From a virus: a DNA stretch of 37,709 nt. Under the pieces are notes generated by a model that did not search any database, was not told the DNA's origin, and worked only from the letters and a program-made list of their open reading frames with translations. Positions 2,578 to 37,709 of the stretch are shown here, in pieces. The stretch covers positions 1 through 37,709 of IMG/VR virus record IMGVR_UViG_3300038470_000052; one strand, given 5' to 3'. The position numbers were made by a program, and so were the translations under genes. Every line of letters starts with the position of its first letter. Position 1 is the stretch's first letter.

Positions 2578-2832
2578 TTAACTTCTATCAATTCCTTCTG
2601 GAACATTTTTATTAAAAACTGTCACCATCCATTTACCAATACCACCAGCAAACTCTACTTTGCAACCACCCATTGAATTTCTATAATGATATGCTGCAAG
2701 ATATGCATCTGTTTCTGTTTCTATAAAAAAATGAAATCCCCAATCCAAAATCCCTATTCCATTTATTTTTATTGTTTGAATTTTACCAGTTTTTGGATTT
2801 TTATGTAAAATACTATCACTTATTCTTGCCAT
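2578..2832 (-). CDS. Hypothetical protein, first gene of the minus-strand accessory operon
   Basis: The protein has 84 residues, starts at ATG 2832 with GGGGAGG upstream, and is predicted to be mostly beta (KIQTIKINGIGILDWGFHFF...CKVEFAGGIGKWMVTVFNK). It is the first gene after the promoter at 2888-2916, whose spacer holds a copy of the 13-bp operator, so it should be expressed when the switch repressor is absent. The roughly 40-base leader can form a small hairpin (AGAGTG with CACTCT). I do not recognise the family. Confidence 0.7.
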   Translation of the reverse strand: MARISDSILHKNPKTGKIQTIKINGIGILDWGFHFFIETETDAYLAAYHYRNSMGGCKVEFAGGIGKWMVTVFNKNVPEGIDRS

Positions 2833-2887: not shown

Positions 2888-2916
2888 AATATACTCAATT
2901 GGTAGTATTATTGCAA
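2888..2916 (-). promoter_or_regulatory. Minus-strand promoter of the accessory/lysis operon
   Basis: The -35 is TTGCAA (2916-2911), followed by an exact 17-bp spacer and a -10 of TATATT (2893-2888). Transcription is predicted to start near 2881. The spacer contains the operator TACTACCAATTGA (2907-2895). The promoter at 3535-3563 is built in the same way, with the operator in the spacer. Confidence 0.75.
2895..2907 (-). promoter_or_regulatory. 13-bp operator, copy 1
   Basis: TACTACCAATTGA lies between -35 and -10 of the leftward promoter. It matches the consensus TAYTACCRWTTGA shared with 3228-3240, 3544-3556 and, with one mismatch, 28919-28931. A protein bound here would block RNA polymerase. 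Confidence 0.6.
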
Positions 2917-2936: not shown

Positions 2937-3185
2937 CTAATTATTTATATTTATTTTTCGGTATTTTACTTTCTTGGCACGCCTTTTGCCCTTTGGGAAT
3001 CCAACCGGGTTAATGAGTTTCCTTAAAATTCTCAATCCTCGTCTGGTTATGATGTACTTATTACCAAGCAAATATATATCATCATTCTGACCAACTTCCT
3101 GGCAATATTTTTGGCATTTAATTTTTAATGTCTGCCGATGCTGATTGAGTTCAGCTGCCGCCATTGTCAAATCGTAAATTTCCAT
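2937..3185 (-). CDS. Small DNA-binding regulator, paralogue of the divergent gene at 3272 (switch protein A)
   Basis: The protein has 82 residues. Its N-terminus looks like a helix-turn-helix of MerR/excisionase type (DLTMAAAELNQHRQTLKIKC), followed by a wing-like region (YLLGNKYIITRRGLRILRK), a PVG-x-P motif and a very basic tail. The divergent 78-residue protein has the same order: AAE-x-L..R-x-T, then YL-x3-Y, GL-x2-LR, I-x-PVG-x-P and R. ATG 3185 has no ribosome binding site and lies 6 bases after a perfect -10, so the mRNA is probably leaderless, as for lambda cI from PRM. I infer an autoregulated repressor; the family is not one I can name. Confidence 0.75.
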   Translation of the reverse strand: MEIYDLTMAAAELNQHRQTLKIKCQKYCQEVGQNDDIYLLGNKYIITRRGLRILRKLINPVGFPKGKRRAKKVKYRKININN

Positions 3186-3191
3186 ATTTAT

Positions 3192-3220
3192 AATATATCT
3201 TAATAGTACGATTATGTCAA
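3192..3220 (-). promoter_or_regulatory. Minus-strand promoter of switch gene A (leaderless)
   Basis: The -35 is TTGACA (3220-3215), followed by a 17-bp spacer and a -10 of TATATT (3197-3192). The start codon begins 6 bases later, so the transcript should start at or next to the A of ATG. The nearest operator lies 8 bases upstream of this -35, a position that would allow activation rather than repression. Confidence 0.8.
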
Positions 3221-3227
3221 TTAAAAA

Positions 3228-3240
3228 TATTACCGTTTGA
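3228..3240 (+). promoter_or_regulatory. 13-bp operator, copy 2 (central)
   Basis: TATTACCGTTTGA lies between the two divergent promoters. Its last four bases form the first part of the rightward -35 (TTGACT), so occupancy would shut the rightward promoter. It sits just upstream of the leftward promoter, mimicking the lambda OR logic. Confidence 0.6.
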
Positions 3241-3265
3241 CTAAATACATTATATATGGTATATT
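3237..3265 (+). promoter_or_regulatory. Plus-strand promoter of switch gene B (leaderless)
   Basis: The -35 is TTGACT (3237-3242), followed by a 17-bp spacer and a -10 of TATATT (3260-3265). ATG 3272 follows after 6 bases with no ribosome binding site. The spacing from -10 to ATG is identical to that of the opposing promoter. Confidence 0.8.
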
Positions 3266-3271
3266 TTAATC

Positions 3272-3508
3272 ATGGAAAAACTTTATGGAAAATATGAGGC
3301 TGCGGAAATCCTTAAATGCAGACCCGAAACAGTTTTAAAAAAACTACAATTATTATATAAAAATTCCGATGGTAACATCCAGTACCTACGCTGCGGTTAC
3401 GTGCTCAACTCTATCGGATTATCAATGCTCCGGGCTGCCATTAAGCCTGTAGGTAAGCCACGCAAAAATCGTGCCACATATGACATTTTGATGCAATTAA
3501 AAAAATAA
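3272..3508 (+). CDS. Small DNA-binding regulator, paralogue of the gene at 2937 (switch protein B)
   Basis: The protein has 78 residues. An N-terminal helix-turn-helix (KYEAAEILKCRPETVLKKLQ) is followed by a YL-x2-GYVLN segment, GLSMLRAAIKPVGKPRKNR and a short basic tail. It aligns along most of its length with the divergent 82-residue protein, which points to an ancient duplication and the two arms of a genetic switch. The start is fixed by the leaderless promoter just upstream. It probably binds the 13-bp operator, perhaps in competition with protein A as Cro does with CI. The role is inferred from arrangement, not from a known family. Confidence 0.75.
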   Translation: MEKLYGKYEAAEILKCRPETVLKKLQLLYKNSDGNIQYLRCGYVLNSIGLSMLRAAIKPVGKPRKNRATYDILMQLKK

Positions 3509-3534: not shown

Positions 3535-3563
3535 TTGTAATATTATTACCGATTGATTATATT
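3535..3563 (+). promoter_or_regulatory. Plus-strand promoter of the recombination operon, with operator copy 3
   Basis: The -35 is TTGTAA (3535-3540), followed by a 17-bp spacer and a -10 of TATATT (3558-3563). The spacer contains the operator TATTACCGATTGA at 3544-3556, exactly as in the leftward promoter at 2888-2916. The predicted leader holds a small hairpin (GCCTG at 3573-3577 with CAGGC at 3585-3589) just before the GGGAGGG site of the first gene. Confidence 0.75.
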
Positions 3564-3606: not shown

Positions 3607-3777
3607 ATGAAAATAACTGATAAAGAAATCGAACTTTTAGCAAAAATCGCAACTCAAATAATCTGTAACGGAATCGAAGCAACTAAACAAAACATCATGG
3701 AAACTTTTAATTATTCCGAAAATGATGCGCGGTTATTGATTATCACATCTGGCAAACAATTAGGAATAAATATTTAA
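3607..3777 (+). CDS. Small hypothetical protein, first gene of the recombination operon
   Basis: This 56-residue protein starts at ATG 3607 after a strong GGGAGGG site. The sequence begins MKITDKEIELLAKIATQIIC and is predicted to be largely helical, with a possible helix-turn-helix-like second half (ETFNYSENDARLLIITSGKQ). It is the first product of the operator-controlled rightward promoter. I do not recognise the family. Confidence 0.65.
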   Translation: MKITDKEIELLAKIATQIICNGIEATKQNIMETFNYSENDARLLIITSGKQLGINI

Positions 3778-15102: not shown

Positions 15103-16008
15103 TTACTCCTTTCCGTAGGGGAGGCCGATATAATCAAGCACCTCTCCTAATTTTAATTTGTTTACGCAATACTCCCACAAATTTCTATGAGTTTTTTTAA
15201 GCATTTCGAATCTATTAACTTTTTGCATATGTAACCCAAACATGCAGAAAATACAACCCGTTCTCTCGATACCTGTATCATAAATGCTGCAATATTTTAT
15301 ATTTTTTGATCTGATATATTGCCAAATGTCCTCATTAGTCCAAAATGCAATAGGCCAGGAAACAGGTGGTGATTTCCCGAACGCATTGCAACCATGTTTT
15401 TGATATTCAATGCTCCGTCCATTAGAATCTTTTGACATTATTCCGATAATTCCATGTCTTCCTGTTTCTTTTTCGTAGATTCGCAATGGGCTTTTTTTAA
15501 GATACTTACAGCATTTGTCGCTGATTTTAAATGGTGCACTTATCAAAAATTTCCATTTTTCGCTGATTTTAAAACGTTTATATTTTTCCGTTCCCTCCCA
15601 TCGTATTTTTTTTAACGCCTCACTTTTTGTGTTTCGATACTGCTCGATATAAGATGCCTGTTCTTTGCTGATTATTGGATAGCCATATTTATCAATAATT
15701 TCCTTAAAAGTATATTTTGGTTTAATCCATATAACATTGTCAATTGTTTTAACAAATTCTTTTATTTCAGGATATTCCAGGCCTGTATCAACAAACACGG
15801 CAGGAATATGCGGGTAAATTTCGCGCACAAGATCAAGTAAAACAGTCGAATCCTTTCCGCCGGAAAACGAAATATATACATCGCCATTATAATGTTCATA
15901 CCAATCTCTTATCCGCTGTTGTGACAAAATTATTTTCGCATCGAGTGGCAATCCTTGTCTTATTCTTACAGTATCGGGGGTTATTTTTGCAGTAAATTTC
16001 CTTTGCAT
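15103..16008 (-). CDS. PAPS reductase / DndC-like sulfur-transfer enzyme within the tail operon
   Basis: The protein has 301 residues. The PP-loop SGGKDS is at 49-54, followed by the VFVDTGLEYPEI strand typical of PAPS reductases and DndC-type ATP pyrophosphatases. Cysteines at KCCKYLKKSP and in RTGCIFCMFGLH, a motif common in phage members, may hold an Fe-S cluster. The enzyme probably activates or transfers sulfur (sulfate reduction, or modification of nucleic acid); no DndB/D/E genes are present. It sits between the tail tube and chaperone genes, in the same direction and tightly spaced (its stop is next to the chaperone's GTG), like a cargo gene inserted into the late operon. Confidence 0.85.
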   Translation of the reverse strand: MQRKFTAKITPDTVRIRQGLPLDAKIILSQQRIRDWYEHYNGDVYISFSGGKDSTVLLDLVREIYPHIPAVFVDTGLEYPEIKEFVKTIDNVIWIKPKYTFKEIIDKYGYPIISKEQASYIEQYRNTKSEALKKIRWEGTEKYKRFKISEKWKFLISAPFKISDKCCKYLKKSPLRIYEKETGRHGIIGIMSKDSNGRSIEYQKHGCNAFGKSPPVSWPIAFWTNEDIWQYIRSKNIKYCSIYDTGIERTGCIFCMFGLHMQKVNRFEMLKKTHRNLWEYCVNKLKLGEVLDYIGLPYGKE

Positions 16009-25769: not shown

Positions 25770-25925
25770 TCTTTTTTTTTCGGAGATAGAACAGGTAACA
25801 TCTGTTATCTCGCTATTATGTATCTGGATTTTAAAATCAACAGCTCCGTATTTAATCCCGTTTATTTTATCAGTATTTGATTTTATGCTATCCAGGATTG
25901 CGTTTGTCATTGCCAGCGCTATCAC
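25758..25925 (-). CDS. Small hypothetical protein
   Basis: The protein has 55 residues, starting at GTG 25925 in a GTGA overlap with the preceding stop, with GAGGAG upstream. The longer frame from 25973 would run through the neighbouring gene. It reads as a helix (TNAILDSIKSNTDKING) plus strands (AVDFKIQIHNSEITDVTCSI). It is the last gene of its unit, and its end contains the -35 of the late promoter. Unknown function. Confidence 0.6.
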   Translation of the reverse strand: MIALAMTNAILDSIKSNTDKINGIKYGAVDFKIQIHNSEITDVTCSISEKKRLTK

Positions 25926-27379
25926 TTTTTGAGCTCCTCGATAAACGGGCTTTTGCCTCTGCCATCCAGCCACAATAAATGCTCGGAATGTTTTTTGATA
26001 TCGACACCAGCAGGATTGTTTTTGTATAGCCAGGCGATGGCACCTTCTGCCCCTCCCTGGATTTCCACAAACCTCTTGCCATAATGCCCCGGGCTTCCTG
26101 ATCTAATCATGTATGTGTTATTTTTAGCCAGGTATGGCTCTATCCGTTCGATTAGTTCCCGCTCTGTAGGTATTGCTGCCGTGGGTTTTTTCTCATGTTG
26201 TTTGTGAGATATACGCTCCATTGACAGATAAGGGATCTCCGTAATGATTGACTTTTTGGAGCAGTTAATAACAGGGGCGTTGCTTGCTAATATCTGCATG
26301 AGTACCGACCGTTTATAAAATAGCTGGATGCGTTCGGTTTTCACCCCATTATCAGCCGTCACAATTTGCCGTTCGTCCGGTAATGGGTAATGCTTATCTA
26401 CAAATTGCATTTTTTCTGCGGAAAACTCAATATCAGTAAACCTTTCGGCCGACAAATCGCAGCCAACGAGGTAAATCGGACTATAGCCCATGATCTGCGC
26501 AATCGCTATCTGTGCGGATATCGAGCATGAAAACATTGGGATTTCTGTTTTTATAAAATCATAAGCTGCATCGATAGGCGCGGTTAAAGCTTTGTTTGGA
26601 GTAGTGCAACGGAAAAAATATTTATCAACAGGGATTGTGAGTATTTCAGGTAATACTCCCGGGTGTGTTATGATTGAGTTTTTAAATAAATTGCTGGTTG
26701 CCCTATAATCGAACTGTGCTTTTTTTGTCCGTGCGTCTAACACAAGCGTATGTATTATTGCGCTATCTGTCGTATGATAATTTATAATATTAAAATGACT
26801 CGCTGTGCAGATAACCGGGCGTATCCAGCTGCCAAGATATGGGATAAAATCATTTAATGATGATCCAGACCCTATAACAACACAAGGGCAGTTTGCACTT
26901 CCTGGCTCTATATTGCCTTTCTTTTCAACAGCAAAATAATCAATTATTGTTTTATAATTTTTGTAACTATTCACCACCTCGCTCGATATGATAAAATCTT
27001 CGCTCGCCTTATTGTATCCTGCTGTTGATTCAAAGCTATTTCCTTCATTCGGTTTAATTTGCTCCTGCAATATTCCGGTCTCAAATGCCATGATGTATAG
27101 CTGATCATATGTCAAACCGTTTGTGAATTTGTTAGACGCTACAAAGCAATAGCTGCCTGATTTGTCTGGCACATAATGAGGTGTATATCCTATAGGATGA
27201 TTCCTGTTTTGAGTGCTGATCTTATACGGGTCTTTTAAAACAAATGCAGGATAATTGGCGATAGGTGCTATCAATTTCTTAAACTCTCCAATAGGAATCC
27301 TGTTGTTTTCTATTGGCATTCCCTCAAAAAGCTTCAATTCTCCCTCTTCGATTTTTAAAAAGTTTTTTTCAAATTCCAT
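25922..27379 (-). CDS. DUF115 / MptE-like (Maf-type) protein
   Basis: The protein has 485 residues. The central domain has a nucleotide-sugar or pterin type start (CPCVVIGSGSSLNDFIPYLG), then SIITHPGVLP, and a late SISAQIAIAQIMGYSPIYLV with GCDLSAE. This is the motif order of the DUF115 family (6-hydroxymethylpterin diphosphokinase MptE-like and flagellin Maf glycosyltransferases). In a phage it may glycosylate a virion or host surface component, or make a cofactor; neither can be settled here. The N-terminal 150 and C-terminal 90 residues are specific. It is coupled on both sides to small genes. Confidence 0.75.
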   Translation of the reverse strand: MEFEKNFLKIEEGELKLFEGMPIENNRIPIGEFKKLIAPIANYPAFVLKDPYKISTQNRNHPIGYTPHYVPDKSGSYCFVASNKFTNGLTYDQLYIMAFETGILQEQIKPNEGNSFESTAGYNKASEDFIISSEVVNSYKNYKTIIDYFAVEKKGNIEPGSANCPCVVIGSGSSLNDFIPYLGSWIRPVICTASHFNIINYHTTDSAIIHTLVLDARTKKAQFDYRATSNLFKNSIITHPGVLPEILTIPVDKYFFRCTTPNKALTAPIDAAYDFIKTEIPMFSCSISAQIAIAQIMGYSPIYLVGCDLSAERFTDIEFSAEKMQFVDKHYPLPDERQIVTADNGVKTERIQLFYKRSVLMQILASNAPVINCSKKSIITEIPYLSMERISHKQHEKKPTAAIPTERELIERIEPYLAKNNTYMIRSGSPGHYGKRFVEIQGGAEGAIAWLYKNNPAGVDIKKHSEHLLWLDGRGKSPFIEELKK

Positions 27380-28490: not shown

Positions 28491-28508
28491 AATTAATCTC
28501 CCCAGCCT

Positions 28509-28537
28509 ATATTAACACAGTGCGGGAACAATATCAA
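28509..28537 (-). promoter_or_regulatory. Minus-strand promoter of the membrane/Cys-rich/DUF115 unit
   Basis: The -35 is TTGATA (28537-28532), followed by a 17-bp spacer and a -10 of TAATAT (28514-28509). The transcript should start near 28502, about 12 bases before the ATG. No copy of the 13-bp operator is present. Confidence 0.65.
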
Positions 28538-28914
28538 TAAAAAACAAAGGAATTTTTACTAAAAAAACTATCAAATTTGATACTTTACCCGAAGTCAATA
28601 GAGTCTATAAGCGCAATTAGTATAATGCTTTTCTATATTAATATATATATACTATATAAATATATATAATATAAAGAGATATATTATTACTCCTATTGAT
28701 CTAATTGGCCAGGCGTAAAGTGATACGAATTTACCCTATTAGCATTACATTGGGAATATGTACCTCATGATTTTATTTATGGGTATTTTTTAGGACTATA
28801 TATCTATATAGGCGCATCCGCAAATTTAACGTATGTCCAATAAGTACAATAGATTCAATAATCTAATTCTTTTTGCCATAAACAATTATTTTATCATGCG
28901 TCAAAGCATATTTT
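28538..28914. other. Long AT-rich intergenic region, candidate replication origin
   Basis: This 377-base stretch between divergent units has no convincing gene. About 28630-28690 is almost pure A/T. Two related stretches occur: TGATACTTTACCC near 28578 and TGATACGAATTTACCC near 28720. ATCTAATT is also repeated (near 28700 and 28860). Its place next to the HTH and primase-helicase genes suits an origin or control region, but there is no clear iteron array or DnaA box. Confidence 0.35.
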
Positions 28915-28918
28915 TTGA

Positions 28919-28931
28919 CATTACCAATTGA
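28919..28931 (+). promoter_or_regulatory. 13-bp operator, copy 4 (one mismatch)
   Basis: CATTACCAATTGA matches TAYTACCRWTTGA at 12 of 13 positions and overlaps the -35 of the next promoter, the same geometry as the central operator at 3228-3240. This links the replication operon to the switch 12 kb away on the circular map. Confidence 0.55.
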
Positions 28932-28956
28932 CATTAAATGCAAAACAAGATATTAT
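28928..28956 (+). promoter_or_regulatory. Plus-strand promoter of the replication operon
   Basis: The -35 is TTGACA (28928-28933), followed by a 17-bp spacer and a -10 of TATTAT (28951-28956). The start is near 28963, leaving only about 10 bases before ATG 28973, with AGGAG at 28962-28966. A second TTGACA at 28915 has no matching -10. Confidence 0.75.
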
Positions 28957-28972
28957 GCCTCAGGAGTAAAAA

Positions 28973-29266
28973 ATGGATGATTTAATCGTTAAAGTGACAA
29001 AACAAAAGGTTATGGACACGTACTATAACCACAATTTACGTGATACTGCCAGGCTACTGGGAATCACGGTCAGGGCGCTTTATGAGTTAATGGAGCGGTA
29101 TGGTATCAGCAAAAAGGGGCGGGGGAAGCAATGGAAAAATAAACGCCGGGTGCAAATAGTTATGGAAGACCCGGAGAATTCCTTCATCCCGAAGGCGTAT
29201 CTGAAGGACGGCCGGGTGATCCCATTAAAAAAAGAAAAAATGTACTGCTACATCAAAGATAAATAA
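28973..29266 (+). CDS. Fis-type helix-turn-helix DNA-binding protein
   Basis: The protein has 97 residues. A clear HTH of the Fis/NtrC C-terminal type lies at about 16-43 (YNHNLRDTARLLGITVRALY, then ELMERYGI). A basic linker follows (KKGRGKQWKNKRR), then a C-terminal part with strands (RVQIVMEDPENSF, YCYIKDK). It is the first gene behind the operator-controlled promoter and may act on the origin-like region upstream or on later promoters. Sequence specificity is unknown. Confidence 0.8.
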   Translation: MDDLIVKVTKQKVMDTYYNHNLRDTARLLGITVRALYELMERYGISKKGRGKQWKNKRRVQIVMEDPENSFIPKAYLKDGRVIPLKKEKMYCYIKDK

Positions 29267-33109: not shown

Positions 33110-33520
33110 GTGATAGGAAAGGAACTAAAAGCGGAAAGAATTAAAAAAGAAATTACAATTTCCAGGCTGCATAAATTAACTGGAATAGGATTAATAGAAT
33201 TATCCCAATATGATATTGAATTGAAGCCGCCAACAATTGAACATTTAAAGCTTATTTGTAATTATCTTAATCTTGACTATAAGCATTACCTGGAAATACT
33301 GAAAAACGAAGATGCTTCTGTTTATGCAAAAAATAAACAGGAATGGGAAGAATTTAATCTGATTTGCGATATAATCGGGAAATCAAAACCTGATATTAAA
33401 CCAGATGAAACAATAAAAAAGACATGTATTTGCGGTGGTATACTATCAATAAAAAAATCAGCATATAACGGGCACGTCTGCGCAGCATGTAATAAGTGTG
33501 GATTTAAAATGATTGAGTAA
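33110..33520 (+). CDS. XRE-family regulator with C-terminal zinc ribbon
   Basis: The protein has 136 residues starting at GTG 33110, with GGAGGAG upstream. Residues 3-65 form an XRE HTH (LKAERIKKEITISRLHKLTG, then IELSQYDIELKPPTIEHLKL). The C-terminal 35 residues are a zinc ribbon (CICGGILSIKKSAYNG...CAACNKCGFK). It may be a mid-phase regulator of the operon it lies in. It does not resemble the paired switch proteins at 3.2 kb. Confidence 0.82.
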   Translation: MIGKELKAERIKKEITISRLHKLTGIGLIELSQYDIELKPPTIEHLKLICNYLNLDYKHYLEILKNEDASVYAKNKQEWEEFNLICDIIGKSKPDIKPDETIKKTCICGGILSIKKSAYNGHVCAACNKCGFKMIE

Positions 33521-33533
33521 CAAAGGAGACCAA

Positions 33534-34208
33534 ATGCCATTAAACATTGCTAAAGGAAATATGTATGGATTTATTACCCATACATGGAATTTTATTAAAG
33601 GAGTTTGCCCGCATAACTGTTCATATTGTTATATGCGGAAAAGGTGGCCGCGAATGAAGAAACCGCGCCTTGACGAAAAGGAATTTAAAATCCGCCCCGA
33701 GCCAGGCAGTAAAATATTTGTCGGCAGCAGCATAGATATGTTTGCGGATGCAATCCCTTCTGAATGGATAAATAGAATTTTGTGTTATATTGATGCAATG
33801 AAGGATTGTACTTTTTTATTGCAAACAAAAAATCCTAAAAGATTCAATCATAATCGTTATCCTGGGAATTGCATACTATGCACCACGATAGAAACAAACA
33901 GAAATTGCATAACCGGTAATGAGCCGAAAATAATTGACAGGATATATTATTTTACGCATGGGATGCCAGACAATAGGAGAATGTTGACAATTGAACCAAT
34001 AATGGATTTTGATATTGAGGAAATGTTAAACTTAATTATTCAATCGCATCCATTTCAAATTAATATAGGCGCCGATAGCAGTAACAATCATTTGCCCGAA
34101 CCGTCAAAAGAAAAGCTTGAGGCATTCATTAAATTATTAAAAGACAATAATTTTAATGTCTTTTTAAAACCTAATTTGAATAGGATTTTAAATGGATTTG
34201 ACAGCTGA
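33534..34208 (+). CDS. Radical SAM protein of the DUF5131 (phage Gp37/Gp68-like) type
   Basis: The protein has 224 residues; ATG 33534 follows AAAGGAG. The motif C-x3-C-x2-C (CPHNCSYCYM, C25, C29, C32) would bind the 4Fe-4S cluster. HTWNFIKGVCPHNC, IFVGSSIDMFADAIPSEWIN, FLLQTKNPKRF, MLTIEPIMDFD and the late FQINIGADSS follow the pattern of the phage DUF5131 family. The reaction is unknown; a DNA- or nucleotide-modifying role is suggested by the next two genes. It overlaps the nuclease-like gene by 17 bases. Confidence 0.85.
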   Translation: MPLNIAKGNMYGFITHTWNFIKGVCPHNCSYCYMRKRWPRMKKPRLDEKEFKIRPEPGSKIFVGSSIDMFADAIPSEWINRILCYIDAMKDCTFLLQTKNPKRFNHNRYPGNCILCTTIETNRNCITGNEPKIIDRIYYFTHGMPDNRRMLTIEPIMDFDIEEMLNLIIQSHPFQINIGADSSNNHLPEPSKEKLEAFIKLLKDNNFNVFLKPNLNRILNGFDS

Positions 34209-37170: not shown

Positions 37171-37709
37171 TTATTCGTGATAAAAAAAACCAACATTCCC
37201 CTGGAATTTAGCAGCATTCCACCAATCGTCATCAATAAGTCTATAGTTATAATGCCCTGCCTGTGAAATATCAAACCCGCCTGGATTGATTGGCGATAGG
37301 TTGTAAAAATACAAACTAATGTGTCCTGATTTATTCCCTTTGAATCCAGGATATTTTTTTGTATCGCGGAATTTGTTTGCTGCTGAAATCACACATAACG
37401 CATGTTCTTTGGCTTTTGCTTTTAATTCATCCAGATTTTTAGCTTTCTTCCAGCCGAACAACGCAGAATACGGACTATTTAACCAATCATACAACCCATT
37501 AGCTGACACGTCACAAATAGTTTTTCCTGGAATAAAAAGCCATTCCTTCACATCGGTTTTTTCGTAGATTTCAATTGTTGCTTTTTCCCACCAAACTTTG
37601 GGCAGATAGATTTTAAACAATCCGCAAAAATCGGTTGCATACCCATTACAAAAGGTATTGTAGCTAATTTTTTTTTCAGCATTCGCATCATGCCGCTGGT
37701 ACCGGGGGG
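37171..37709 (-). CDS. NlpC/P60-like peptidase (candidate endolysin), C-terminal part across the contig cut
   Basis: This is the second part of the 230-residue protein that starts at 281 on the other side of the cut (37583-37709 repeats 1-127). After the Cys72 motif come LPKVWWEKA, DVSANGLYDWLNSPYSALFG, the helix KAKEHALCVISAA, then GNKSGHISLYF (His181) and SQAGHYNYR (Gln201). The order Cys motif, A-N-x-LYDWL, GHIx-V/L, QAG-x-N is that of a group of papain-like peptidoglycan peptidases. A conventional endolysin is not seen elsewhere, so this is the best lysis enzyme candidate. It lacks a signal peptide and cell-wall-binding domain, so a holin or spanin partner would be needed. Confidence 0.6.
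   Translation of the reverse strand, partial: PRYQRHDANAEKKISYNTFCNGYATDFCGLFKIYLPKVWWEKATIEIYEKTDVKEWLFIPGKTICDVSANGLYDWLNSPYSALFGWKKAKNLDELKAKAKEHALCVISAANKFRDTKKYPGFKGNKSGHISLYFYNLSPINPGGFDISQAGHYNYRLIDDDWWNAAKFQGNVGFFYHE
37583..37709. repeat. Terminal direct repeat, copy 2 (assembly overlap)
   Basis: Identical to bases 1-127. Together with the gene reading through the join, this shows the sequence is circular, about 37,582 bp after removing one copy. Confidence 0.95.

What the first reader, a model, noticed from the sequence alone, without database searches (positions are those of the whole stretch)
2937..3508. Two divergent paralogous, leaderless regulators form an unfamiliar genetic switch
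The 82- and 78-residue proteins are transcribed away from each other and align along most of their length (AAE..., YL-x3-Y, GL-x2-LR, I-x-PVG-x-P). Each has a near-consensus promoter with a 17-bp spacer ending 6 bases before its ATG, with no ribosome site. The lambda CI/Cro switch is built from two unrelated-looking HTH proteins; here both arms seem to be duplicates of one small winged-HTH-like protein. I know of no named family with this arrangement.
Basis: partly seen in the sequence, partly recalled or inferred. Interest (0 to 1): 0.85.

Follow-up and report, generated by a model that had tools for sequence, protein, structure and literature searches.

The report
Mirror-image phage regulator gene pair
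A previously unseen phage carries two small sister proteins made back to back from messages that probably start right at the first codon, and the promoters around them share a DNA motif, so this looks like an on/off gene switch resembling known phage switches but built from an unknown protein family.

Summary
ORFs 2937-3185 (-, 82 aa) and 3272-3508 (+, 78 aa) diverge and are related (29% identity; BLASTP E=1e-5 for the single comparison; shuffle z about 6). Each has a strong sigma-70-like promoter ending 6 bases before its ATG. Only 3 of 1,380 ATGs in the window have such a promoter, and 2 are these.

The arrangement is larger than reported. The next promoter outward on each side is a near copy (32/41 bases). 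The sequence TACCRWTTGA occurs exactly four times in the genome, always intergenic: on the -35 of the 78-aa promoter, inside both outer promoters, and on the -35 of the replication-operon promoter. The 82-aa promoter has none. I read this as a CI/Cro-like repressor pair in which the 82-aa protein holds down the early promoters. Protein-DNA binding is inferred, not shown.

Novelty is moderate. P22 C2 and Cro are detectable paralogues by the same test, and phage PY54 makes both cI and cro as leaderless mRNA. The combination, the mirrored outer promoters and the protein family are new as far as searched: no relatives in any collection. The winged-HTH fold is unproven. No integrase or resolvase was found, so lysogeny is open.

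The parts
2937..3185 (-). 82-aa regulator-like protein (CI position), predicted leaderless start at 3185
3272..3508 (+). 78-aa paralogue (Cro position), predicted leaderless start at 3272
3192..3220 (-). Promoter P82: TTGACA-17-TATATT (11/12), ends 6 nt before ATG; no copy of the shared motif inside
3237..3265 (+). Promoter P78: TTGACT-17-(TG)TATATT (10/12), ends 6 nt before ATG
3229..3243 (+). Operator-like site ATTACCGTTTGACTA, centred -36 on P78 and -51 on P82
3535..3563 (+). Outer promoter P56: TTGTAA-17-TATATT, before the rightward early operon (56-aa gene, RecE, RecT, helicase)
3545..3559 (+). Operator-like site ATTACCGATTGATTA in the spacer of P56 (centre -18)
2888..2916 (-). Outer promoter P84: TTGCAA-17-TATATT, near copy of P56, before the leftward operon (84-aa gene)
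2892..2906 (-). Operator-like site ACTACCAATTGAGTA in the spacer of P84 (centre -18)
28920..28934 (+). Candidate fourth site ATTACCAATTGACAT, centred -36 on the 11/12 promoter 28928-28956 of the replication operon; not significant on score alone
3607..3777 (+). 56-aa orphan protein with a normal Shine-Dalgarno, first gene of the rightward operon
2578..2832 (-). 84-aa protein (phrog_7982, unknown function), first gene after P84

Best explanation
A divergent repressor pair that works like a CI/Cro switch. The 82-aa and 78-aa proteins are paralogous small DNA-binding proteins, made from leaderless mRNAs off back-to-back promoters. One or both bind a shared site (core TACCRWTTGA). Binding would shut the 78-aa promoter (site on its -35), both outer promoters (site in the spacer) and probably the replication-operon promoter, while leaving the 82-aa promoter open. 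The 82-aa protein would then be the maintaining repressor of early genes, and the 78-aa protein a Cro-like competitor that damps early transcription. Shown by sequence: the genes, their paralogy, the promoters, the motif and its positions. Inferred: leaderless initiation, DNA binding, which protein binds which site, and bistability.
For: Paralogy. Promoter placement relative to ATG, 3 of 1,380 ATGs. TACCRWTTGA occurs four times in the genome, all four intergenic although only 8.8% of the genome is intergenic. Outer promoters 32/41 identical; the next best match in the genome is 25/41. Regular geometry: centres at -36 on two promoters and -18 on two. The pair sits at the divergence point of a leftward operon and a RecE/RecT/helicase operon, as in temperate phages.
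Against: No known DNA-binding family matches either protein above cut-off; the AlphaFold models are poor (mean pLDDT 46 and 56) and Foldseek gives nothing. No integrase or resolvase found, so a lysogenic state is not supported. The motif was defined after seeing its copies; the site at 28920 is no better than chance by score (132 of 200 shuffled genomes reach it). No relatives exist to show conservation.
Confidence: 0.58

Rival explanations
1. A timing circuit of a virulent phage: both proteins are early regulators that shut off the early operons as infection proceeds, with no bistable or lysogenic state.
For: No integrase or resolvase by family search, and no partition gene among the family matches seen. 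The sites lie on early promoters.
Against: Two paralogues in opposite directions with an exempt promoter for one of them is what a switch needs; a shut-off circuit needs only one. Many gene products are unassigned, so a maintenance system could be missed.
Confidence: 0.27
2. One protein is the repressor and the other is its antagonist through hetero-oligomers, like an antirepressor or excisionase, rather than through competition for the operator.
For: Paralogy allows mixed dimers. The C-terminal tail differs most between the two.
Against: Nothing in the sequence shows dimerisation; the shared motif fits direct DNA competition equally well.
Confidence: 0.1
3. The proteins are not regulators: the pair is an unrelated small-gene pair and the shared motif is a feature of the phage's promoters themselves.
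For: No recognisable DNA-binding domain. TTGA in the motif overlaps -35 elements at two sites.
Against: In the two outer promoters the motif lies in the spacer, not on the -35. The 82-aa promoter, the strongest in the region, lacks it.
Confidence: 0.05

Closest known systems
PY54 / N15 / phiKO2 immB switch (cI or cB and cro)
   Same: Divergent repressor and Cro; in PY54 both are made from leaderless mRNA, shown by RACE (PMC4488713); in N15/phiKO2 the operator motif recurs upstream of the distant replication gene repA (PMC4997575).
   Different: PY54 and N15 CI/Cro are not detectably paralogous (z -1.5 and 1.7); the prophage repressor is much longer; no near-identical mirrored outer promoters are known to me; different proteins.
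P22 C2/Cro immunity region
   Same: Divergent paralogous pair (z 8.5 by the same test); the start of the RM transcript is annotated within a few bases of the C2 start codon.
   Different: cro has a leader with GGAG; C2 is a long repressor; three operators between the genes.
Lambda CI/Cro
   Same: Same layout: back-to-back promoters, rightward early operon after Cro; cI from PRM is leaderless (general knowledge; cited in PMC4488713).
   Different: CI and Cro not alignable; cro has AAGGAGG; three operators.
Staphylococcus phage phi11 CI/Cro
   Same: Divergent pair with 15-bp operators, CI and Cro each binding different ones (PMC3991615).
   Different: Three operators between the genes; no leaderless claim seen in the passages I read.

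Membership tests
CI/Cro-type divergent phage switch | Two divergent genes with promoters facing away at the early-operon boundary | tested here: met
CI/Cro-type divergent phage switch | Repeated operator overlapping the divergent and other early promoters | tested here: inconclusive
   Four motif copies at four promoters; motif defined after the fact and only one copy lies between the genes
CI/Cro-type divergent phage switch | Both proteins bind the operators with opposing outcomes | not testable with these tools
   Needs EMSA, footprinting and reporters
CI/Cro-type divergent phage switch | Temperate life cycle (integrase or plasmid maintenance genes) | tested here: not met
   No Phage_integrase or Resolvase match in the genome; no partition gene among the family matches seen
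XRE/HTH_3 (CI, Cro) protein family | Significant match to HTH_3 or related models | tested here: not met
   No Pfam, PHROG or NCBIfam match above cut-off; profile score 19.8 vs shuffled maximum 15.3 over only 16 columns
HTH_17 / excisionase-like winged HTH | Significant match to HTH_17 or a confident winged-helix model | tested here: inconclusive
   Profile score 17.5 vs shuffled maximum 16.7; AlphaFold pLDDT 46 and 56; the 82-aa model has a beta-alpha-alpha-beta-beta-alpha order but no Foldseek match
Leaderless mRNA | -10 element 5-8 nt before the start codon and no Shine-Dalgarno | tested here: met
Leaderless mRNA | Mapped 5' end at the start codon | not testable with these tools
   Needs 5'-RACE or dRNA-seq

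The most novel reading that the evidence does not exclude
A switch that arose by inverted duplication of a whole cassette (promoter, regulator gene, outer promoter with operator), giving two mirror-image arms whose proteins belong to a new DNA-binding family, both translated from leaderless mRNA and controlling the phage's early promoters through one shared operator.
Probability: 0.25. Interest if true: 0.6.

Novelty: new variant of a known kind. Interest (0 to 1): 0.4.

Why it matters
If confirmed, it shows that a CI/Cro-style switch can be made from two copies of one very small protein (about 80 residues, with no room for a CI-type C-terminal domain), with one shared operator used at two fixed positions. 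That would give a minimal test case for how a duplicated regulator splits into two opposing roles. Each separate feature already has a precedent, which limits the surprise.

Tried and rejected
Relatives: single-protein and paired-alignment scans of IMG/VR, GTDB contigs, INPHARED, PLSDB (78-aa protein only), 17 related phage records, 391 and 398 genomes drawn from two bacterial groups centred on TerL-bearing genomes (weak hits all lie in long ORFs), a degenerate GLxxLRxxIxPVGxP pattern (the one hit is antisense to a long ORF that I read as a portal gene) and the outer-promoter DNA signature: none. Myosin/calmodulin matches of the 78-aa protein to PDB chains were rejected as chance. Single-sequence structure prediction and Foldseek were uninformative. 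Inverted duplication at DNA level: the arms align end to end (score 84 vs shuffled maximum 56), but split up only the outer promoters are significant (0 of 3,000); the core promoters (108 of 3,000) and gene bodies (403 of 3,000) are not, so duplication rests on protein homology, mirrored order and the outer promoters. A seventh-ranked motif-like site inside the 82-aa gene (3164-3178) is not separable from chance. No relation between the 78-aa protein and the HTH-like gene at 28973.

Full report
What the window is. It is a 37.7-kb viral record with a 127-bp direct repeat at its ends, so I treat it as a complete circularly closed phage genome. It encodes a PBSX-like terminase, portal, capsid and tape measure, RecE and RecT, a helicase and a primase. 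The terminase relatives found in the genome collection are almost all in Clostridia (27-36%), a weak host hint. There is no near DNA relative of its first 12 kb among sequenced phages.

Checking the observation. The two ORFs, their lengths and directions are as stated. Promoters are TTGACA-17-TATATT (3220-3192, minus) and TTGACT-17-TATATT with an extended -10 TG (3237-3265, plus), each ending 6 bases before ATG. As a control I scored every ATG in the window: 3 of 1,380 have a >=10/12 promoter whose -10 ends 4-9 nt upstream, and two of these are the two genes; no other of 49 gene starts does. Neither gene has a usable Shine-Dalgarno, while 30 of 49 genes score one of at least 4 bases (that count includes a distant 4-base TAAG before the 82-aa gene, which I do not count as usable). 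The N-termini align (ME..Y in both), which supports these start codons. Leaderless starts are therefore well predicted, not shown.

Paralogy. 29% identity end to end; BLASTP E=1e-5 for the single comparison; local score 59 against a shuffled mean of 26.5, reached by 1 of 20,000 shuffles, and global by none; mutual best matches among all window ORFs. Identity by codon position is 45/60/26%: third positions are saturated and second positions conserved, so both are real proteins under selection and the split is old.

Searching outward, the promoter after each gene is a near copy of the other: TTGCAA TAATACTACCAATTGAG TATATT (2916-2888, minus) and TTGTAA TATTATTACCGATTGAT TATATT (3535-3563, plus). 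The 41-bp stretch matches 32/41, and the next best place in the genome is 25/41. Both drive the outward operons. The shared core TACCRWTTGA occurs exactly four times in the genome, all intergenic, although 8.8% of bases are intergenic: at 3229-3243, in both outer promoters, and at 28920-28934 on the strongest promoter of the second early region, before an HTH-like gene and the primase. Motif centres fall at -36 on P78 and on the 28928 promoter, and at -18 on both outer promoters. Caveats: the motif was defined after the fact, and the 28920 site does not beat shuffled genomes on score.

How it likely works. A protein bound at these sites would occlude P78, P56, P84 and probably the replication promoter, and would not touch P82, whose -35 is 8 bp away from the nearest site. 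That is the logic of a maintenance repressor encoded by the 82-aa gene and a Cro-like partner encoded by the 78-aa gene. The steps from sequence to binding and to bistability are inferred. A shut-off circuit in a virulent phage is the main rival, since no integrase or resolvase was found.

Fold. No family library recognises either protein above cut-off. AlphaFold without relatives is poor and Foldseek empty. A two-row profile scores slightly above shuffled columns against both HTH_17 and HTH_3, consistent with a generic helix-turn-helix and no more. 'Winged HTH' is a guess.

Comparison with known switches. I ran the same kind of shuffle test on four known pairs: lambda z 0.8, PY54 -1.5, N15 1.7, P22 8.5. 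So a paralogous divergent pair has a clear precedent in P22. Both arms leaderless has a precedent in PY54 (RACE; PMC4488713). Repeating the operator at a distant replication gene has a precedent in N15/phiKO2 (PMC4997575). What I could not find a precedent for is the combination, the mirrored outer promoters, and the protein family, which has no relative in any collection searched. My literature search covered only the open-licence library.

Verdict. A real and coherent regulatory locus, a new variant of a known kind, with an orphan protein family. Interest 0.4.

Noticed in passing
1-127 and 37583-37709: 127-bp identical direct repeat at the two ends of the record, suggesting a complete, circularly closed assembly.
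   Followed up: partly
33110-33520: 136-aa protein with a weak Cro/CI-type HTH (HTH_26, E=5e-4, below cut-off) and what looks like a C-terminal zinc-ribbon, a second possible regulator far from the switch.
   Followed up: no
28491-28972: 482-bp AT-rich divergent intergenic region with TATATA repeats between the structural and replication gene blocks; possible origin or regulatory region.
   Followed up: partly
15103-16008: PAPS-reductase-family gene placed among the tail genes.
   Followed up: no
25922-27379: 485-aa protein with weak similarity to MptE-like (6-hydroxymethylpterin diphosphokinase-like) domains next to the terminase genes.
   Followed up: no
33513-34208: DUF5131 / radical-SAM-like protein encoded by the phage.
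   Followed up: no
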